Positions 1 through 52,154 of a stretch of 52,154 nucleotides of DNA are shown here, piece by piece. Position numbers and translations under genes: made by a program. This stretch comes from a virus. Location: IMG/VR virus record IMGVR_UViG_3300008517_000183, positions 1 through 52,154 of that record; one strand, given 5' to 3'. Numbering within the stretch: position 1 is the first letter of the stretch; every line of letters starts with the position of its first letter. The notes beneath the pieces were generated by a model that worked only from the letters and a program-made list of their open reading frames with translations, was not told the origin of the DNA and did not search any database.

Positions 1-119
1 CAGCCCTCCAGTTTTGCTCAGATAAATTGACCCCTGAGCAGATAGACAGATGGGGAGACGAATATCCATCGGTAGCCCTGGAATATTGCTCAGACAAATT
101 GACCGCTGAACAAATCGAG
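1..119. repeat. 119-bp exact terminal direct repeat, left copy
   Basis: Bases 1-119 are identical to 52036-52154. The length fits a k-mer overlap left by a de Bruijn assembler at the join of a circular molecule. It falls inside the solenoid-repeat gene, and a near-copy with a mismatch near its 3' end exists at about 47328-47446, so a repeat-induced join cannot be fully excluded. The join gives a paralogue of normal length, which favours real circularity. Confidence 0.9.
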
Positions 120-218
120 AGATGGGGAGATGTGGAACCGCGGGCAGCCTTGTTTTATTGCTCACATAAATTAACTCCTGAGCAAATAGACCGGTTTGGA
201 GGGATATATGACAATTAA
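1..218 (+). CDS. Solenoid-repeat protein E, C-terminal part (continues from 51684)
   Basis: This open frame has no start here because it is the 3' end of the gene that begins at 51684. Joining the ends after removing the 119-base overlap gives one 189-residue protein with five full 24-residue helical repeats. This part carries the last two repeats (WGDEYPSV and WGDVEPRA types) and an unusual tail ending RFGGIYDN, where the paralogues end in WRNR. The stop at 216-218 overlaps the start of the next paralogue (208). Function unknown; family described at 208-768. Confidence 0.85.
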   Translation, partial: ALQFCSDKLTPEQIDRWGDEYPSVALEYCSDKLTAEQIERWGDVEPRAALFYCSHKLTPEQIDRFGGIYDN

Positions 219-768
219 ACAAAAAAAACAATGGATCAAAAAAGCCACGGAAAGAGGGGCCTGTGAAGATTTTTTTATGTGGCTTGATGATAAAAATATC
301 GAGGACTTAGAGATTAGCGATATCCCTCCAGAGTACGGTTTATGGGCGGTTGGGGAAATAGATTTGCCTGTATCCCCTGAACAAATAGAAAAATGGGGGG
401 ATATTGACCCATCGACAGCCCTTGAATATTGCTCAAACAGATTAACCCATGAGCAAATCGAAAAATGGGGGGAGAAATGGCCATCGGCAGCCCTGGAATA
501 TTGCTCAGATAAATTAACCCCTGAGCAAATAGAAAAATGGGGAGATGTGGAACCGCGGGCAGCCCTGCGATATTGCTCACATAAATTAACCCATGAGCAA
601 ATAGACAAATGGGGAGATAGACAGCCATGGGTAGCTCTAATAGATTGCTCAAACAGATTGACTCCTGATCAGATAGAAAAATGGGGGGAGAAATGGCCAA
701 TAGTAGCTCTAAAATATTGCTCAGATAAATTGACCCCGGAGCAAATCGAGAGATGGAGGCACAGATGA
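208..768 (+). CDS. Solenoid-repeat protein A (24-residue TPEQI-W-AL-YC repeats)
   Basis: The ATG at 208 is chosen because all paralogues begin MTIKQK or similar and GGAGGG lies just upstream. The 186-residue product has a header of about 57 residues (charged helix, then a motif like EISDIPPEYGLWAVG), five full repeats and a short cap. Each repeat reads roughly LTPEQIEKWGDxxPxxALxYCSDK, two short helices, so a right-handed alpha solenoid is likely. Positions 12-13 (ID, KW, VE, RQ, KW) and 15-16 vary while the frame residues are fixed. No family name is recognised. Paralogues lie at 46975, 47604, 48090 and 51684. Confidence 0.9.
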   Translation: MTIKQKKQWIKKATERGACEDFFMWLDDKNIEDLEISDIPPEYGLWAVGEIDLPVSPEQIEKWGDIDPSTALEYCSNRLTHEQIEKWGEKWPSAALEYCSDKLTPEQIEKWGDVEPRAALRYCSHKLTHEQIDKWGDRQPWVALIDCSNRLTPDQIEKWGEKWPIVALKYCSDKLTPEQIERWRHR

Positions 769-11543: not shown

Positions 11544-11814
11544 AAATTATAAATGCCTAAATCAAAATTGTACAGTTGAATATTATTACTCCGATACAAA
11601 CGGATTCTGCCCGGGATGTGAGTACAGAGGGCAAGTTGTATGTCGATGTCAAGAGTGTGGATGTGAAGGGAGTCTGTCTTGTAGTCATGATTGGCTGGAT
11701 GAGGAAAAGTTATGTACATTGGATGAATGGCTTGTCTGCCCGTGCTGCAATATAGACCCAAAACATATGGTAATAGGTGAGATAGGGCAAAAATTGCTGA
11801 ATATATTAGAGTGA
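11536..11814 (+). CDS. Cys-rich multi-zinc protein, 92 aa
   Basis: About a dozen Cys residues arranged in pairs (CLNQNC, CPGC, CRCQECGC, CPCC) suggest two or three zinc sites. Starts within the previous gene and ends overlapping a GTG that precedes the sugar cassette. Function unknown. Confidence 0.6.
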   Translation: MNENYKCLNQNCTVEYYYSDTNGFCPGCEYRGQVVCRCQECGCEGSLSCSHDWLDEEKLCTLDEWLVCPCCNIDPKHMVIGEIGQKLLNILE

Positions 11815-11825
11815 AAAGAGGAAAA

Positions 11826-12653
11826 ATGAATATATTTATAACAGGTGGTACTGGAAGTTTAGCGAAAAACTATATTAAAGAATTACTTAAAAAAGATATC
11901 CCTGGGAAAATTATTGTGTATTCCAGGAATGAGAAAAATCAATGGGAAATGAAACAAGAATTTGATGATAAAAGAATCCGTTATTTTTTGGGGGATATAA
12001 ATAATACTGAGAGATTAAACCTTGCAATGAGAGAAGCGAATGTCGTTATTCATGCGGCAGCTTTAAAACATATTGATATTTGCGAGTATAACCCTACAGA
12101 AGTCATAAGAACAAATATACAAGGGACTTATAATGTGATGATGGCTTGTATAGCAAATAATATAAAAAAAGCTGTTTTTATATCAACCGATAAAGCGGTT
12201 AAGCCAAAAGGTATTTATGGCAAATCGAAAGCATTAGGTGAGGATTTTTGGTTAAGATCAAATCATTATAAAAAGATATTCAGTGTTTGCAGATACGGAA
12301 ACATCGTTAATTCATCGGGTGCTTTGTTGCAAAAACTGCAACAATTTAAAGGTGGTGTATTCCCAATTACAGATGAAGAGTGTACAAGATTTTACGTAAA
12401 TGGGGAGATAATTTATAAATCAATTTTAGAAGGATTGGACAACCTGGGGTTATTTGTCCCTGAAATGGTGGGGTATAAAGTTAAAGATATGATAAATATT
12501 TTTGGGTATAAAACAAAGATCATAGGATTAAGAAAGAATGAGAAGCTCCATGAACAAGCATATTATTCATTTCAATCTAAAGGAAATATGTATTCTAATG
12601 ATGAAATAATGGACGATCTAGAGCAAAGATTAAAAGAGGATGGATATTTATGA
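11826..12653 (+). CDS. UDP-GlcNAc 4,6-dehydratase-like SDR enzyme (PseB/FlaA1 type)
   Basis: The ATG at 11826 follows GAGGAAAA; an in-frame GTG at 11811 is less likely. The 275-residue extended short-chain dehydrogenase has the nucleotide loop TGGTGSL (6-12), STDKA (T121, D122, K123) and YGKSK (Y131, K135). The D-to-Y spacing of nine matches the dehydratase PseB, which makes the first intermediate of pseudaminic acid from UDP-GlcNAc. It opens a five-gene cassette with overlapping stops and starts. Slightly shorter than cellular PseB (about 330). Confidence 0.85.
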   Translation: MNIFITGGTGSLAKNYIKELLKKDIPGKIIVYSRNEKNQWEMKQEFDDKRIRYFLGDINNTERLNLAMREANVVIHAAALKHIDICEYNPTEVIRTNIQGTYNVMMACIANNIKKAVFISTDKAVKPKGIYGKSKALGEDFWLRSNHYKKIFSVCRYGNIVNSSGALLQKLQQFKGGVFPITDEECTRFYVNGEIIYKSILEGLDNLGLFVPEMVGYKVKDMINIFGYKTKIIGLRKNEKLHEQAYYSFQSKGNMYSNDEIMDDLEQRLKEDGYL

Positions 12654-13258
12654 TTATTTTAGATTGTGGATCAGGGGAAACTTGCCGTAATGATGAAAAA
12701 ATTGTAAAGAAAATGATTGATTCGTTGGATTCTGTAGACACCCGAAAGAATCATGTGGTAATAAAATGGCAATTATTTGAGTATTTTCCATCATTAATAC
12801 CTTTAGATTGTGACGTTTATAAATATGCTTACGATTATGCTAAATCATTAAGATACGAAACTACTGCAAGTGTTTTTGATAAAAGAAGTTTGGATATTTT
12901 AATGAGGCTTAAAGTCCCGTTTGTTAAATTAGCAAATATCCCGAAATTAAAATCTTTGATTGGTGAGATCCCTAGGAAAGTTGAAGTTATAAGAAGTATT
13001 TCAAATCCAGAGGAAATGGATTTTAATTATCATGTTTATTATCTTAAATGTATCAGAAAATATCCGGCAAGGGCAGAAGACTATGAAAAAGATGATATAG
13101 GCAAATACTCCGGGATATCAGATCATACAGAAGATTTTGAATTGTATAAGAAATATTCCCCTGGAATATATGAAACACATTTTAAATTAGAAGATTCAAT
13201 AGGTGCTGATTCCGGGCCATGGGCGAAAACACCGGAACAATTAAGGGAGATATTATGA
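12650..13258 (+). CDS. Compact NeuB/PseI-like nonulosonic acid synthase
   Basis: NeuB-family enzymes condense an amino sugar with phosphoenolpyruvate to make sialic, legionaminic or pseudaminic acid. The 202-residue protein keeps barrel landmarks: an opening strand and helix (DEKIVKKMIDSL), the HVVIKWQLF strand, VPFVKLAN, then YSGISDHT, ETHFKLED and GPWAKTPEQL near the C-terminus. It is much shorter than cellular NeuB (about 340) because loops are trimmed and the C-terminal antifreeze-like SAF domain is absent. Activity without that domain is uncertain. Start overlaps the dehydratase stop. Confidence 0.75.
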   Translation: MIILDCGSGETCRNDEKIVKKMIDSLDSVDTRKNHVVIKWQLFEYFPSLIPLDCDVYKYAYDYAKSLRYETTASVFDKRSLDILMRLKVPFVKLANIPKLKSLIGEIPRKVEVIRSISNPEEMDFNYHVYYLKCIRKYPARAEDYEKDDIGKYSGISDHTEDFELYKKYSPGIYETHFKLEDSIGADSGPWAKTPEQLREIL

Positions 13259-13533
13259 ATGTAGATTATAAGGATGTTGTGATCAAGATAGAAGAAACAA
13301 TTTTGGGATTTTTGGGATGGGCTGAGAAATACAAAAAACATAGACCAAGAAATAAAGAAAAATATTTGAGAGGCCAACAAGATATTATTGGATTAATAAC
13401 ACACTCAATTTTGGGGATGGCCTTTATACAACAAAAAGAACAAAATGAAGAATATACTCAATTCGTAAAAATGTTCAATGATTATTATGCAACCTATAAG
13501 AAGGCACAAAATGTTATTAAAACCTCTAAGTAA
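13255..13533 (+). CDS. Hypothetical protein within the sugar cassette, 92 aa
   Basis: ATG overlaps the synthase stop (TATGA). The protein is helical with a basic centre (KKHRPRNKEKYLRGQQDIIG). No homology to sugar enzymes is recognised. It overlaps the acetyltransferase start. Its place inside the cassette suggests a supporting role but nothing in the sequence shows it. Confidence 0.6.
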   Translation: MNVDYKDVVIKIEETILGFLGWAEKYKKHRPRNKEKYLRGQQDIIGLITHSILGMAFIQQKEQNEEYTQFVKMFNDYYATYKKAQNVIKTSK

Positions 13534-14047
13534 AGAAGATATTGAAAAAGTAAGAGAGTGGAGACATGAAAATATGTTCTCTTTGAGGACTCCGTTTTTT
13601 CTGACAAAAGAGATGCAACAAGATTATTATGAAAAAGTAATCTGCAATAGAGAGTCAAAGACAAGATATTGGGGAGTCCATGACTCGCTAATAGAAACAA
13701 CTGAAAAATCCTGTCCACTTATATTTATAGGGTATGGAGGGATTGAGAATATTCATTGGGAAAATGGGAACGGAGAAATTAGTCTATTGATTGGCCCTGA
13801 CTGGGTCGGTAAAGGTTTAGGAAGTCGAGCGGTAAGTATGTTTTTAGATCAAGCATTTAATTATTTTAATTTACAAACAGTTTATGGAGAATGTTATTTA
13901 TGTAATCCAGCGTGGGTGTTTTGGGATAAATTAACCAAAAAATATAACGGGAAATCAACAACATTACCAAGACGTAAATATTATAAAGGTAAATATTGGG
14001 ATAGTTTTTACTTTACTATTTTCAAAGAGGGGTTTTTTAGTGAATGA
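13511..14047 (+). CDS. GNAT-family N-acetyltransferase (PseH-like position)
   Basis: Start at the MLLKPL methionine, which gives the usual GNAT opening LLKPLSKEDIEKVREWRHE. The 178-residue protein has strand 4 GNGEISLLIGPDWVGKGLGSRA with the acetyl-CoA loop GKGLGS, then a long helix. GNAT enzymes of this layout acetylate the amino sugar in pseudaminic or legionaminic acid pathways (PseH). The substrate is inferred from the neighbours only. Confidence 0.75.
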   Translation: MLLKPLSKEDIEKVREWRHENMFSLRTPFFLTKEMQQDYYEKVICNRESKTRYWGVHDSLIETTEKSCPLIFIGYGGIENIHWENGNGEISLLIGPDWVGKGLGSRAVSMFLDQAFNYFNLQTVYGECYLCNPAWVFWDKLTKKYNGKSTTLPRRKYYKGKYWDSFYFTIFKEGFFSE

Positions 14048-14651
14048 CACGATTGCGGTTATACTTGCACGGAAAGGATCAAAAAGAATCCCTGGGAAAA
14101 ACACTATAAATTTTCTTGGGAAGCCGATGATCCAATATACAATTGAAAATCTTAAAAAATGGGGAAAAGCGGATATTATAATTTCAACAGATGATGATAA
14201 AGCAAAAGAAGTAGCCCAAAAAAACAATGTGGCTATTTCCGATAGAAAAGATGGTGGGGATGATGTAACAATGTACCAATCATTAAGAGATGTCTTAAAA
14301 CACGCCCACCATGCTAAATATTTACTCGCTTATGCCTGTTGTCCATTTGATATTGTTGGGGACTTGGATAGAGCTTATCAAATGTTAAGTGAAACAGATA
14401 TGGTTACGACGTTACAGCCCTGTTCTAGGGAGAGATATATATTTGATGATAGATTAATCCCCCAAGGGAATTCATTAGATCTAAGATACACACACCCCGG
14501 ACAGTTTTTTATGGGGTGGATTGATCCACTAATGGAAGGGGGGACGATATTTGTAAGAAACAAAAAAGCTATAATTATTGACTGGAAAGAAGGACAAGAT
14601 ATTAATTACCCGGAAGATTTAGAAATAGCTAAATTGAAATTGAAGAGTTGA
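14040..14651 (+). CDS. CMP-nonulosonate cytidylyltransferase (NeuA/PseF-like)
   Basis: GTG start overlapping the acetyltransferase end. The 203-residue protein has the signature ARKGSKRIPGKN (about 10-21) that binds CTP, then IISTDDDKAKEVA and later QPCSRERYIF and INYPEDLEIAK, all typical of CMP-sialic or CMP-pseudaminic acid synthetases. It would activate the sugar acid as a CMP donor for a transferase. The aminotransferase and UDP-hydrolase of a full pseudaminic pathway are missing here, so host help is implied. Confidence 0.85.
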   Translation: MNDTIAVILARKGSKRIPGKNTINFLGKPMIQYTIENLKKWGKADIIISTDDDKAKEVAQKNNVAISDRKDGGDDVTMYQSLRDVLKHAHHAKYLLAYACCPFDIVGDLDRAYQMLSETDMVTTLQPCSRERYIFDDRLIPQGNSLDLRYTHPGQFFMGWIDPLMEGGTIFVRNKKAIIIDWKEGQDINYPEDLEIAKLKLKS

Positions 14652-43853: not shown

Positions 43854-44316
43854 CCTCTACCTCCGGTAATTCGACGTTGTATTTTCCCGCAACTAATGTT
43901 AATGCCCAATAAGCCGTCAACAATTGATTATTAGATATTTTAGGTGACGAGGTTGAAGGGGACGGGATTAACCCAATGTCAAACGACCCGTCAATTGTCC
44001 TGATTCGTTGCTCTCGGGTAGGCCACGGGGCGTATCCCTCTAATAGAGAGTCGTCCGGGATCGAACAGGCATAGAATAAAATCCTTATTTTGAACTCATC
44101 CCGAGTATACCCTGATAGCTCATCAATGTTATGCACAGCCCATTTCCACAGATGTGTAAGATGGGCGTGAAACCGTTTCAAAAGCTCTCCTGAATGCCTG
44201 ATATCGTTCGACAGGACGATCTTAAATGGCTTGTCTGCCTTCGAGACAATATCAACCATCTCTTCGCACACAGGGCCTATATTCTCGGGTGTGAGGGATT
44301 TATAGGTCTTTGTCAT
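43843..44316 (-). CDS. Possible NinB-like recombination protein, 157 aa
   Basis: Between a Cas4-like nuclease and an HNH nuclease. IRHSGELLKRFHAHLTHLWKW has the flavour of NinB/Orf proteins, which load onto ssDNA during phage recombination, but the match is weak. An alternative is an unrelated structural partner of the nuclease. Confidence 0.45.
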   Translation of the reverse strand: MTKTYKSLTPENIGPVCEEMVDIVSKADKPFKIVLSNDIRHSGELLKRFHAHLTHLWKWAVHNIDELSGYTRDEFKIRILFYACSIPDDSLLEGYAPWPTREQRIRTIDGSFDIGLIPSPSTSSPKISNNQLLTAYWALTLVAGKYNVELPEVEDDL

Positions 44317-45116
44317 TTGTCACTCACCTTTTCCTCTCCATACCATAACCCGGATTTAGATAGATATTCTTGCCAGCAGGTATCCCGCCAACTACAATAC
44401 CCACATTCCCAATCGGATTTATACTGAATTTTATTTCGTTGCCTTAAAGCGTGAAATCCCCCACCATGGATAAGCTGTTTTTTCTCCCGGTTAGGGATAT
44501 TTTTAGTCTCGACAGCTTTTTCAATGCGTTTCAATTTTGATACGACATCATCAAAACTAAAACGGTATAGATCATTGCCGACCTGTAACCCCTCGGGAAC
44601 TCGTAACACCTCAAACTCTGTACGATATCCAGAATCTCGGCCTATATAAGGATGTAACCATTTTGTAATCTGGAAAATCTCTGAATAAATAAAAATCTGT
44701 TTGAGATAATCTATCTTAGGCTTACCTGTTTTCTGGATATTAACAATCCCCCGTCCGAACATAGATTTTAATTCCACTCCTACGTCTCCGTCGGGGGTAG
44801 TGATAATGTAATCCGCTGTACACGAGATAGGATATTTAAGCCCAGGATAAGAGACTTTTTTCTTAATCTGAGATTGTAGCCTATACCCAGTTTCCTCGCA
44901 ATAAAATTCGAGGAATTCCTCGAACAGATGTTCGGTCAGATATCCGTATCGCTGTTTTAATATCCCTCCCGGGGTATCGGGGTTGGTTATAGGCTCATCA
45001 ATCCACCTATAGTAGAGCTGCCTAGAGCAATTACCTACACTAGATCCATGATGAGAGGTTGTCTCCCATTTTGGCCTATCCATAAGCCATTTATCGAAAT
45101 CGTTTAATAGTTTCAT
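44313..45116 (-). CDS. Cas4/AddB-like PD-(D/E)XK nuclease with Fe-S site
   Basis: The 267-residue protein is the first gene of the leftward operon. It has Cys in VGNCSRQLYYR (C30), TEH (H63), ADYII (D102), VELKS (E115, K117) and C-terminal CGYCSWRDTC (C238, C241, C247). One Cys far from three C-terminal ones is the iron-sulphur arrangement of Cas4 and AddB, and D/E-K gives the nuclease core. It probably processes DNA ends during recombination. Confidence 0.8.
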   Translation of the reverse strand: MKLLNDFDKWLMDRPKWETTSHHGSSVGNCSRQLYYRWIDEPITNPDTPGGILKQRYGYLTEHLFEEFLEFYCEETGYRLQSQIKKKVSYPGLKYPISCTADYIITTPDGDVGVELKSMFGRGIVNIQKTGKPKIDYLKQIFIYSEIFQITKWLHPYIGRDSGYRTEFEVLRVPEGLQVGNDLYRFSFDDVVSKLKRIEKAVETKNIPNREKKQLIHGGGFHALRQRNKIQYKSDWECGYCSWRDTCWQEYLSKSGLWYGEEKVSDK

Positions 45117-45179: not shown

Positions 45180-45207
45180 TTGACAAATAAAATATAGAGT
45201 ATATAAT
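45180..45207 (+). promoter_or_regulatory. Rightward promoter with TTGACAAATAAAATA box
   Basis: TTGACA (45180-45185) and TATAAT (45202-45207) are spaced by 16 bases. The 15-base -35 region is identical to the one at 6056. It drives the right-arm accessory genes. Confidence 0.8.
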
Positions 45208-46810: not shown

Positions 46811-46974
46811 ATGTAGATGTGAAGGAATTGATTGAAACATTGATTGATAATACAAAAACAATGATATCCTTGGATGGGTACACCATAGGATGGGGGCTGA
46901 CAGAAAAGATAGAAAGAAACAAAAAAATAATAGAATCAGCCACCGGGAAATTCTGGAATGAAATGGAGGAATAG
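46807..46974 (+). CDS. Small helical protein, 55 aa
   Basis: ATGA overlap with the previous stop. MNVDVKELIETLIDNTKTMI; ends MEE just before the first repeat gene, and its last codons supply that gene's GGAGG ribosome site. Function unknown. Confidence 0.5.
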   Translation: MNVDVKELIETLIDNTKTMISLDGYTIGWGLTEKIERNKKIIESATGKFWNEMEE

Positions 46975-47607
46975 ATGACAATTAAACAAAAAGAAAAATG
47001 GATCAAAAAAGCCACGGAAAGAGGGGTTTGCACAGGTTTTTTGAGCTGGATTAAGGATAAAAGTATCGAGGACTTAGAGATTAGCGATATCCCTCCAGAG
47101 TACGGATTATGGGCGTTTGGAAAAATAGATTTACCCGTATCCCCTGAGCAGATAGAAAAATGGGGTGACAGAGTGCCACGGGCAGCCCTAGAATATTGCT
47201 CACATAAATTAACCCCTGAGCAGATAGACAGATGGGGAGATAGACGGGCAGGGGCAGCTCTAATCTATTGCTCAGATAAATTAACTCCTGATCAAATCGA
47301 GAGATGGGGAAATCTAAAGCCAGAGGCAGCCCTCCAGTTTTGCTCAGATAAATTGACCCCTGAGCAGATAGACAGATGGGGAGACGAATATCCATCGGTA
47401 GCCCTGGAATATTGCTCAGACAAATTGACCGCTGATCAAATCGAGAGATGGGGAGATAGACGGCCATGGGAAGCCCTAGAATATTGCTCAGATAAATTAA
47501 CCCCTGATCAGATAGAAAAATGGGGGGAGAAATGTCCATGGGAAGCTCTTGAATATTGCTCAGATAAATTAACCCCCGGGCAGATAGAAAAATGGAGGAA
47601 TAGATGA
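46975..47607 (+). CDS. Solenoid-repeat protein B, six repeats
   Basis: The largest member (210 residues): header, six full 24-residue repeats and cap WRNR. Residues 12-13 of its repeats are RV, RR, LK, EY, RR, KC. It contains a near-copy of the window-terminal 119 bases (mismatch near its 3' end). The stop overlaps the next paralogue's start and GGAGG lies in the cap codons, so the tandem genes are coupled. Confidence 0.9.
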   Translation: MTIKQKEKWIKKATERGVCTGFLSWIKDKSIEDLEISDIPPEYGLWAFGKIDLPVSPEQIEKWGDRVPRAALEYCSHKLTPEQIDRWGDRRAGAALIYCSDKLTPDQIERWGNLKPEAALQFCSDKLTPEQIDRWGDEYPSVALEYCSDKLTADQIERWGDRRPWEALEYCSDKLTPDQIEKWGEKCPWEALEYCSDKLTPGQIEKWRNR

Positions 47608-48089
47608 CATTTAAAAAGAAATTAGCCTGGATCAAAAAAGCCAAGGAAAATAACGCCTGTAGAGAGTTTTTTATTTGGCTTGAGAATAAAAATATAGAAA
47701 AATTAGAGATTTCTGACCTTGATCCGATGGATGGATTATGGGCGGTTGGAAAAATAGACCTCCCCGTATCCCCCGGGCAAATCGATAAATGGGGAGATAA
47801 ATATCCAGGGGTCGCCCTGAGACATTGCTCAAACAGATTAACCCATGAGCAAATCGAAAAATGGGGAGATAGACGGCCAATAGAAGCCCTAAAATATTGC
47901 TCAGATAAATTGACCCCGGAGCAAATAGATAGGTGGGGGGATAGACAGCCATGGACAGCCCTAAAATATTACGCAGACATATTAACCTCTGATCAAATCG
48001 AAAAATGGGGGGATAGATATCCAGGGGCAGCCCTAGAATATTGCTTAGACAGATTAACTCCTGAGCAATATTTTAGATGGAGGAAATAG
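47604..48089 (+). CDS. Solenoid-repeat protein C, four repeats
   Basis: The shortest member (161 residues). Header MTFKKKLAWIKKAKENNAC, four full repeats (variable pairs KY, RR, RQ, RY) and an altered cap EQYFRWRK. Two repeats carry YYADILT and YCLDRLT instead of the usual YCSDKLT, variants also found in D and E. Overlaps B. Confidence 0.9.
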   Translation: MTFKKKLAWIKKAKENNACREFFIWLENKNIEKLEISDLDPMDGLWAVGKIDLPVSPGQIDKWGDKYPGVALRHCSNRLTHEQIEKWGDRRPIEALKYCSDKLTPEQIDRWGDRQPWTALKYYADILTSDQIEKWGDRYPGAALEYCLDRLTPEQYFRWRK

Positions 48090-48650
48090 ATGACAATTAA
48101 ACAAAAACAAGAATGGATCAAAAAAGCCAAGGAAAATAACGCCTGTACAGAGTTTTTTATGTGGCTTGATGATAAAAATATTGAGGACTTAGAGGTTTCT
48201 GACCTCGATCCGATGGATGGATTATGGGCGGTTGGGGAAATAGACTTACCTGTATCCCCTGAGCAAATAGAAAAATGGGGTGACAGACGGGCATGGGCAG
48301 CCCTAGAATATTGCTCAGATAAATTAACCCCTGATCAGATAGATAAATGGGGAGATAGATGGCCACGGGAAGCCCTGAGATATTGCTCAGATAAACTAAC
48401 CCCCGGGCAAATCGATAAATGGGGAGATAGACAGCCATGGGTAGCTCTGCGATATTGCTCACATAAATTGACCGCTGAACAAATAGATAGATGGGGAGAT
48501 AGACGGCCATCGGCAGCCCTAAAATATTACGCAGACATATTAACCCCTGATCAGATAGAAAAATGGGGGGATATTGACCCATGGACAGCCCTTGAATATT
48601 GCTCAAACAAATTAACCCCTGAGCAAATAGAAAAATGGAGGAACAGATGA
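48090..48650 (+). CDS. Solenoid-repeat protein D, five repeats
   Basis: The 186-residue product has the common header, five repeats (variable pairs RR, RW, RQ, RR, ID) and WRNR cap. Its DIDPWT repeat resembles DIDPST in A and DIDPLT in E; DRQPWV is shared with A. Starts one base after the stop of C. Confidence 0.9.
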   Translation: MTIKQKQEWIKKAKENNACTEFFMWLDDKNIEDLEVSDLDPMDGLWAVGEIDLPVSPEQIEKWGDRRAWAALEYCSDKLTPDQIDKWGDRWPREALRYCSDKLTPGQIDKWGDRQPWVALRYCSHKLTAEQIDRWGDRRPSAALKYYADILTPDQIEKWGDIDPWTALEYCSNKLTPEQIEKWRNR

Positions 48651-50619: not shown

Positions 50620-50861
50620 GTAAAATTAGAGAAATATTTAGAACAAAAAATACAATAATTGAGGAAACCCCATTACGGTGGCTTGACAAGGGGGTGTTTG
50701 CGATTAATACCCGTACAGGTGAGCATGTTGTTTTTAGGTACCCAAATGTAGATCCAAAATTTGAATTAGTAGATGAGTCCTCGGTAGAAATACTTAAGCT
50801 ATCAGCGATTAAAAAAGCAATAGACCGCTGTATTATATGGGAGGCAGGAAATGATGACTAA
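50616..50861 (+). CDS. Small protein, 81 aa
   Basis: ATGA overlap. TRTGEHVVFRYPNVDPKFE middle, alpha/beta. Overlaps the lipase start. Function unknown. Confidence 0.5.
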   Translation: MSKIREIFRTKNTIIEETPLRWLDKGVFAINTRTGEHVVFRYPNVDPKFELVDESSVEILKLSAIKKAIDRCIIWEAGNDD

Positions 50862-51483
50862 AGACGCAGTAGAACTAATTTATAAGAATGAAACAAGAGA
50901 CGATGATTATTTAGGTTTGTTTTTTTCGAAATGGGAGAGAGTCAAGGGAAATCTTGACCTTGATTTCACAATCGGGAAAAGAAACGATGAGACATATATC
51001 ATTTTTGAATCAACCAAACCCTACGTGGATTGGATTGTTAATTTCCTTTTCAAGCCAATTTTCGGGATACATAGGGGATTTTGGGCCGGATATCACATTA
51101 ATGAGAAATTGATTAAAGAGAAGCTGAAGGAATATGAAACCCAAAAATTATGTATACTTGGTCATTCTCAAGGCGCAGCCTACGCACTAATTGCAACAAA
51201 AAGAGAAATTGAAACTTGCTATATGGCTAGAAAACCGTTTGATCACATTGAGGCTGTTGTAACCGGAGGGCCAAGAGTTTTTGCAATTGGTCAGATATTT
51301 GGCCAACCAAGTATTGATCTTGTCCACAATGGAAACGATATTGTAACAAAACTACCTCCCAAATGGCTGTGGGGATATCGTAATGTTGGCCAAGTTATCC
51401 ACATAGGCAAGCCCAAAAAATGGTGGAAAATCTCCTTCAAGGATCATGAGATTTCTGAGTATTTAAAAAGAATGGAGGAATAG
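50851..51483 (+). CDS. Class 3 lipase-like alpha/beta hydrolase
   Basis: The 210-residue protein has the nucleophile elbow LGHSQGAA (S106), then GGPRVFA, VHNGNDIVTKLPP (D163) and a C-terminal His (H199 in DHEISEY), which is the order and context of class 3 lipases. No signal peptide is visible, so it acts inside the cell or after lysis. It may hydrolyse host lipids. All catalytic residues appear intact. Confidence 0.8.
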   Translation: MMTKDAVELIYKNETRDDDYLGLFFSKWERVKGNLDLDFTIGKRNDETYIIFESTKPYVDWIVNFLFKPIFGIHRGFWAGYHINEKLIKEKLKEYETQKLCILGHSQGAAYALIATKREIETCYMARKPFDHIEAVVTGGPRVFAIGQIFGQPSIDLVHNGNDIVTKLPPKWLWGYRNVGQVIHIGKPKKWWKISFKDHEISEYLKRMEE

Positions 51484-51687
51484 ATGGTTGACTTTGCAGA
51501 ATATTTACGGGACAACAAGCTGGATAAAATATCTAAATCATTACAAAAACATGTAGAAAAATATACGAAATTAAAGCAGATAGAAATTCTACAGAAGACG
51601 CTAAATCAGTACAAATCAGAACTATCGTGTAGAAGATTTGCTATGCAGATTAATAAAATTAAAACAGATATTAGGAGGAATAGATGA
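51484..51687 (+). CDS. Small coiled-coil protein, 67 aa
   Basis: Follows GGAGGAATAG at the lipase end. Charged helix (VEKYTKLKQIEILQKTLNQY) and basic tail RRNR. Its last codons carry the GGAGG site of the next repeat gene. Function unknown. Confidence 0.5.
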   Translation: MVDFAEYLRDNKLDKISKSLQKHVEKYTKLKQIEILQKTLNQYKSELSCRRFAMQINKIKTDIRRNR

Positions 51688-52154
51688 CAATTAAACAAAA
51701 ACAAGAATGGATCAAAAAAGCCAAGGAAAATAACGCCTGTACAGAGTTTTTTATTTGGCTTGATGATAAAAATATTGATGATTTAAATATTTCTGACCTT
51801 GATCCGACAGACGGACTATGGGCAGTAGCAAAAATAGATTTGCCCGTATCCCCTGATCAGATAGAAAAATGGGGGGATATTGACCCATTGACAGCCCTTG
51901 AATATTGCGCAGATAAATTGACCGCTGATCAAATCGAGAGATGGGGGGATAGACGGCCATCGACAGCCCTTGAATATTGCTTAGACAGATTAACTCCAGG
52001 GCAAATTGAAAAATGGGGAGATAAAGCACCCTGGTCAGCCCTCCAGTTTTGCTCAGATAAATTGACCCCTGAGCAGATAGACAGATGGGGAGACGAATAT
52101 CCATCGGTAGCCCTGGAATATTGCTCAGACAAATTGACCGCTGAACAAATCGAG
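51684..52154 (+). CDS. Solenoid-repeat protein E, N-terminal part (continues at 1-218)
   Basis: ATG at 51684 after GGAGGAATAG. Header MTIKQKQEWIKKAKENNACT and repeats DIDPLT, DRRPST, DKAPWS, DEYPSV run to the window end; the frame continues at base 120 of the left end after removing the 119-base overlap. Total 189 residues. Adjacent to protein A on the circular map, so A and E form a second tandem pair. Confidence 0.9.
   Translation, partial: MTIKQKQEWIKKAKENNACTEFFIWLDDKNIDDLNISDLDPTDGLWAVAKIDLPVSPDQIEKWGDIDPLTALEYCADKLTADQIERWGDRRPSTALEYCLDRLTPGQIEKWGDKAPWSALQFCSDKLTPEQIDRWGDEYPSVALEYCSDKLTAEQIE
52036..52154. repeat. 119-bp exact terminal direct repeat, right copy
   Basis: Identical to 1-119. 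See the left copy for interpretation. Confidence 0.9.

What the first reader, a model, noticed from the sequence alone, without database searches (positions are those of the whole stretch)
46975..48650. Family of 24-residue solenoid repeats with variable residues at positions 12-13, reminiscent of TALE layout
Seen: five paralogues (208, 46975, 47604, 48090, 51684) hold 25 full repeats of the form LTPEQIxxWGDxxPxxALxYCSxK. Backbone positions are nearly fixed while residues 12-13 (ID, KW, VE, RQ, RR, EY, LK, RY, RW, KA and others) and 15-16 vary. Known: TALE repeats begin LTPEQV and carry their base-reading pair at positions 12-13 between two helices, though in 34 residues. Inference: a modular binding surface, for DNA, RNA or protein. 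Homology to TALEs is not claimed; the shared layout may be convergent.
Basis: partly seen in the sequence, partly recalled or inferred. Interest (0 to 1): 0.85.

Follow-up and report, generated by a model that had tools for sequence, protein, structure and literature searches.

The report
Phage helical-repeat proteins with hypervariable face
A bacterial virus carries five copies of a small protein built of identical-length helical building blocks whose exposed face changes fast while the scaffold stays fixed, and unrelated environmental viruses carry the same unnamed kind of protein, which looks like a natural kit for making binders to other molecules and is not a TAL effector.

Summary
A tailed-phage genome holds five paralogues with 25 full 24-residue repeats. 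Variation concentrates at positions 12, 13, 15, 16 and 19, with pN/pS 1.68 there against 0.26 elsewhere. AlphaFold2 gives a confident short alpha-solenoid (pLDDT 93.7): helix A 3-12, a one-residue hinge at 13, helix B 14-20, a 3-10 turn at 22-24. Database scans first gave nothing. A degenerate pattern for the repeat core then found ten IMG/VR records with clear relatives, often as tandem paralogues. A profile built from those relatives alone scores the window proteins at 114-164 bits; the best of 1,005 decoys scores 29. The relatives independently show excess non-synonymous change at the same columns. Pfam, PHROGs, NCBIfam and PADLOC do not name the family; it is distantly similar to DUF4116. 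It is not a TAL effector: repeat length, profile and variable positions all differ. Best reading: a phage family of modular helical binders whose helix-B face diversifies under selection, more likely to bind host or rival-phage proteins than to read nucleic acid one base per repeat. The target is unknown; the function is inferred.

The parts
46975..47607 (+). Paralogue A, 210 aa: N-terminal cap (1-54) plus 6 full 24-aa repeats (first codon of repeat 1 at 47137)
47604..48089 (+). Paralogue B, 161 aa, 4 full repeats; start overlaps A's stop (ATGA)
48090..48650 (+). Paralogue C, 186 aa, 5 full repeats
51684..52154 (+). Paralogue D, 189 aa with 5 full repeats if the contig closes on itself (continues at 120-218)
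3..218 (+). 3' part of paralogue D across the contig junction (bases 1-119 are identical to the contig's last 119)
208..768 (+). Paralogue E, 186 aa, 5 full repeats; start overlaps the end of D
46962..46974 (+). Shine-Dalgarno-like sequence GGAGGAATAG before paralogue A; similar sequences precede B-E, and in A the C-terminal codons (W-R-N-R-stop) contain the next gene's signal, so gene and signal form a unit that could be duplicated in tandem
45180..45207 (+). Perfect sigma-70-type promoter match (TTGACA-16-TATAAT) at the divergent junction upstream of the rightward gene cluster; predicted only
50851..51483 (+). Class-3 lipase-like gene two ORFs upstream of paralogue D; a Lipase_3 gene also adjoins repeat genes in relative L079. 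Association, not shown to be functional

Best explanation
A multi-copy family of phage-encoded short alpha-solenoid proteins. Each 24-residue unit packs as helix A (3-12), a one-residue hinge (13), helix B (14-20) and a 3-10 turn (22-24) on a nearly fixed core (L1, I/L6, A17, L18, Y20), with an N-terminal helical cap. SHOWN: the repeats, the confident predicted fold, clear relatives in ten environmental phage records, tandem paralogues in several of them, and excess non-synonymous change at the hinge and outer helix-B positions 12/13, 15/16, 19 in the window and independently in the relatives. INFERRED: those residues line one continuous binding face; copies arise by tandem duplication of a gene-plus-ribosome-binding-site unit and exchange repeats by recombination; the proteins are early-region accessory adaptors that bind and block or recruit host or competitor proteins (for example defence components), the repertoire being diversified by an arms race. 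The target is unknown.
For: Repeats and paralogues. AF2 pLDDT 93.7, pTM 0.84. Relatives: pattern scan; relatives-only HMM gives 114-164 bits against window proteins, best of 1,005 decoys 29 bits, hhalign probability 99.7%; N-terminal cap of the window proteins aligns with L079/L078. Tandem paralogues: 4 genes in the L060 record, at least 3 in L079. Selection: window hv pN/pS 1.68 (bootstrap 1.27-2.48), rest 0.26, core 0.02; relatives hv 1.78 (1.22-3.97), 15/16/19 1.88 (1.52-6.79), rest 0.32. Same most variable columns 13, 15, 16, 19 in relatives. Mosaic exchange: 109 identical bases shared by A and D. Protein rather than nucleic-acid ligand: 4 of 5 window proteins have pI 4.4-5.0 and most relatives are acidic; 24 different five-residue faces in 25 repeats, more states than a four-letter code needs. 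Engineered alphaRep solenoids bind protein targets on a hypervariable concave face (PMC6362204) and appear among the structural matches. Neighbours in relatives include RecT and a C5 methylase.
Against: No target, interaction or expression data. Structure matches are weak (best Foldseek E 0.07, VIA Z below 9), which for helical repeats may mean only a common arrangement. Repeats exchange sequence, so pN/pS values are not independent and the bootstraps are rough. 'Anti-defence' rests on variability and early-region context alone. B, L078 and L106 proteins are basic.
Confidence: 0.55

Rival explanations
1. Nucleic-acid reader: each repeat contacts one base or base pair through hinge and helix-B residues, as in PUF (RNA) or TALE (DNA) proteins.
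For: PUF domains are among the best PDB matches and appear weakly by sequence (E 1.3). PUF repeats read bases through residues i, i+1, i+4 of a helix (12, 13, 16; PMC2848763), the same spacing as 15, 16, 19 here. Variable diresidue 12/13 at the hinge as in TALEs.
Against: Most members acidic; only 4-6 repeats in the window proteins, so at most 4-6 bases; 13 diresidues and 24 of 25 unique faces, no small code; PF03377 match about 9 residues, 12.7 bits, cut-off 28.
Confidence: 0.15
2. Structural or self-assembly role: paralogues bind each other or a phage structural or lytic protein, the variable face encoding partner specificity.
For: Tandem paralogues in one genome; a lipase gene and a lysozyme gene adjoin repeat genes in L079, and a lipase gene is near D in the window.
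Against: Lipase in only 2 of 18 records examined (window plus 1 of 17); in the window the genes lie outside the structural cluster; diversifying selection is stronger than expected for intramolecular or self partners.
Confidence: 0.15
3. The face varies by relaxed constraint plus repeat recombination, without selection for binding diversity.
For: Tandem repeats recombine and drift; window pS at positions 15/16 is low, which inflates the ratio; units are not independent.
Against: pN exceeds pS, not merely equals it, at the same columns in the window and across unrelated records, while adjacent core columns are near invariant.
Confidence: 0.1

Closest known systems
DUF4116 (Pfam PF13475)
   Same: Short helical repeat, 24 residues in phage protein L030 (member at 124.5 bits); AF2 model has the same layout of a 10-residue helix, 1-residue hinge, 6-residue helix and 3-10 turn; core TPE..I, AL.Y; relatives' HMM scores L030 at 35 bits; proteins annotated DUF4116 hit by tblastn at E about 1e-8 to 1e-7; top BFVD fold match is a DUF4116 protein.
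   Different: PF13475 does not match the window paralogues; direct hhalign of window alignment to DUF4116 alignment 0.25%; other DUF4116 proteins seen here mostly have a 22-residue period; insertion and deletion offset between helices.
TAL effector repeats (PF03377) and STAR proteins
   Same: First five residues of the unit; helix-loop-helix unit with variable residues at 12-13.
   Different: 24 not 34 residues; HMM below cut-off; additional variable positions 15, 16, 19; no small diresidue code. STAR proteins have 34 positions per repeat and TALE-type diresidues (PMC11417379).
PUF/Pumilio RNA-binding domain
   Same: Helical solenoid; weak structural match; recognition residues spaced i, i+1, i+4.
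   Different: Longer three-helix repeats, eight per domain (from general knowledge); no significant sequence match.
alphaRep / HEAT-like engineered binders
   Same: Fixed solenoid framework with a hypervariable face; alphaRep chains among the structural matches.
   Different: Engineered, longer repeats (from general knowledge); no sequence relation shown.
Leucine-rich repeat variant (LRV, PF01816)
   Same: Short helical repeat with 3-10 segments (recalled, a lead only).
   Different: No HMM match at E 10.

Membership tests
TAL effector (PF03377) | 33-35-residue repeat | tested here: not met
   24-residue period in all 25 units
TAL effector (PF03377) | Match to the family profile above cut-off | tested here: not met
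   12.7 bits against cut-off 28, about 9 residues, one of five proteins
TAL effector (PF03377) | Variation confined to diresidue 12/13 | tested here: not met
   15, 16 and 19 are also hypervariable
TAL effector (PF03377) | Sequence-specific DNA binding | not testable with these tools
   needs EMSA or SELEX
DUF4116 (PF13475) | Match to the family profile above cut-off | tested here: not met
   no match in the paralogues; relative L079 19.3 bits, cut-off 24.9
DUF4116 (PF13475) | Short helix-hinge-helix-3/10 unit | tested here: met
   same DSSP layout in both AF2 models
DUF4116 (PF13475) | Common ancestry by profile comparison | tested here: inconclusive
   window direct 0.25%; via relatives 35 bits and 54%
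LRV (PF01816) | Match to the family profile | tested here: not met
   no match at E 10
PUF | Pumilio fold | tested here: inconclusive
   Foldseek E 0.07-0.3, VIA Z about 6
New phage 24-aa solenoid family (relatives L060, L061, L072, L074, L078, L079, L081 and others) | Profile of relatives alone recognises the window proteins | tested here: met
   114-164 bits, decoys at most 29
New phage 24-aa solenoid family (relatives L060, L061, L072, L074, L078, L079, L081 and others) | Same hypervariable columns with pN above pS | tested here: met
Diversity-generating retroelement target | Reverse transcriptase nearby | tested here: not met
   no RVT_1 match in the 52-kb record

The most novel reading that the evidence does not exclude
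A previously unnamed system of natural repeat-protein binders spread over many phages: tandemly duplicated solenoid genes whose helix-B face is diversified by selection and repeat exchange to track changing host or rival-phage proteins, comparable to a natural alphaRep library.
Probability: 0.35. Interest if true: 0.85.

Novelty: new variant of a known kind. Interest (0 to 1): 0.64.

Why it matters
If the inference holds, phages carry a ready-made modular binder scaffold under diversifying selection, whose targets could reveal new host defence proteins. The stable core with five variable positions per 24 residues is compact compared with repeat binders in use and could be tested as a scaffold. 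It also gives a profile to proteins that the family libraries used here leave unannotated.

Tried and rejected
Seed-peptide searches for relatives found none in viral or genome contigs, nor did tblastn in phage records. Plasmid hits of paralogue A: the two loci inspected are antisense to annotated genes next to a replication gene, probably iteron DNA. A 'TPExI' repeat pattern gave mostly low-complexity chance hits but one DUF4116 phage protein (L030). 'QIxxW..AL' patterns gave only chance hits. Genome matches with the profile: one antisense low-complexity hit; the broader profile found none in 398 genomes of one phylum, with no positive control. HMM hits cover short stretches or fall below cut-offs and name no family. 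TAL effector, LRV and DGR readings rejected as above. TALE chains are not among the listed structural matches, but this does not exclude them. A first hhalign test of window repeats against L030 repeats was too weak to claim kinship.

Full report
OBSERVATION. The window is one virus record of 52,154 bases, 37% GC, with 119 identical bases at its ends. It has a PBSX-type terminase, a phage capsid protein, an amidase and a DnaB helicase, so it is a tailed phage. Five same-strand paralogues lie at 46975, 47604, 48090, 51684 and 208. They share an N-terminal region of 54 residues and 4-6 repeats of exactly 24 residues, 25 full units in all. The finding is real. Caveat: the end overlap lies inside the repeat array and matches gene A at 118 of 119 bases, so gene D's completeness depends on circular closure.

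VARIATION. Columns 5, 6, 9, 10, 17 and 18 are invariant. The five most variable columns are 12, 13, 15, 16, 19 (entropy 2.1-3.1 bits; next 1.39). On these columns pN/pS is 1.68 (bootstrap 1.27-2.48), for 15/16/19 2.29 (1.40-4.89); on the others 0.26 and on the core 0.02. Positions 12, 15, 16 and 19 have helical spacing i, i+3, i+4, i+7. Paralogues share mosaic identical blocks, the longest 109 bases between A and D. Gene order and overlaps suggest tandem duplication of a unit that includes the next ribosome-binding site (inference). No reverse transcriptase was found, so a diversity-generating retroelement is not supported.

STRUCTURE. AlphaFold2 on paralogue A with the five-sequence alignment gave mean pLDDT 93.7 and pTM 0.84: per repeat helix 3-12, hinge 13, helix 14-20, 3-10 turn 22-24. 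Foldseek gave no significant PDB match; the first rows include Pumilio domains (E 0.07). VIA-align 2 lists PP2A scaffold, symplekin, alphaRep, CAND1, PUF and importin chains at Z 5-9, all alpha solenoids, at a level that may mean only a common arrangement. The top BFVD match is a DUF4116 protein (E 0.1, probability 0.99). Coordinates could not be read, so the concave or convex side and exposure were not measured.

RELATIVES. Seed-peptide and BLAST searches found none. A degenerate pattern for the AL-Y core plus the next LT, repeated at 72 bases, found ten IMG/VR records with the same repeat (L060, L061, L062, L066, L071, L072, L074, L078, L079, L081), with two to four genes in several. A 3-repeat HMM from relatives only scores the window proteins at 114-164 bits; the best of 1,005 permuted or reversed decoys scores 29; hhalign probability 99.7%. 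The N-terminal cap also aligns. One isolate, Dolichospermum phage Dfl-JY45, holds a divergent member annotated hypothetical. In the relatives the most variable columns are 19, 13, 15, 16 and 11, and within records hv pN/pS is 1.78 (1.22-3.97), rest 0.32. This independent repetition is the strongest evidence for a selected variable face. Caveat: the unit-finding expression fixed A at column 17, and repeats within a record are not independent.

CONTEXT. In the window a perfect promoter match stands at 45180-45207, upstream of the rightward genes that contain A-E; a replication initiator, methyltransferase and DnaB follow E. In relatives the neighbours include RecT (L078), a C5 methylase (L061) and a weak N6 methylase match (L060), and a Lipase_3 gene plus a lysozyme gene in L079. 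Lipase_3 occurs in the window and in 1 of 17 other records, and the two lipases are only weakly alike: a lead only.

WHAT IT WORKS LIKE. A fixed solenoid with a fast-changing helix face, several copies per genome, mostly acidic proteins and 24 different faces in 25 repeats fits modular protein binding better than a base-reading code. The engineered alphaRep family shows that such a surface can bind many protein targets (PMC6362204). PUF recognition residues have the same i, i+1, i+4 spacing (PMC2848763), so RNA binding stays open. That the targets are host or rival-phage proteins is inference from early-region context and diversification.

WHAT IT IS A MEMBER OF. Not TAL effector. STAR proteins, the recent TALE-like discovery, have 34-position repeats (PMC11417379), and an earlier TALE-inspired screen covered only repeats of 30-43 residues (PMC5472282). 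Not LRV by profile. Distantly similar to DUF4116: same unit layout in a phage DUF4116 model, 35 bits and 54% via the relatives, tblastn E about 1e-8 to annotated DUF4116 proteins, but no direct profile match. I found no known function for DUF4116; a published contact-based model is an alpha-solenoid (PMC8078820). I therefore file it as a new family of a known kind, short alpha-solenoid repeats.

Noticed in passing
window 11811-14651: Phage-borne sugar genes: Polysacc_synt_2 dehydratase, NeuB-like, GNAT acetyltransferase and CMP-sugar cytidylyltransferase, suggesting nonulosonic-acid synthesis or modification.
   Followed up: partly
window 50851-51483 and L079 11546-12190: Class-3 lipase-like genes close to the repeat genes in two otherwise dissimilar phages.
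   Followed up: partly
L030 4165-4986: Phage DUF4116 protein with an exact 24-residue period, near a methyltransferase-like ORF and an SSB-like ORF.
   Followed up: partly
L019 1-2202: A 227-kb viral contig encodes an ORF of at least 734 residues of another 24-residue repeat (LTTPELVKLYINKY..LS..GEL..); no profile match to the window repeats.
   Followed up: no
window 44313-45116 (-): Cas4-like exonuclease family (PHROG 1706/1990) divergent from the repeat-gene cluster.
   Followed up: no
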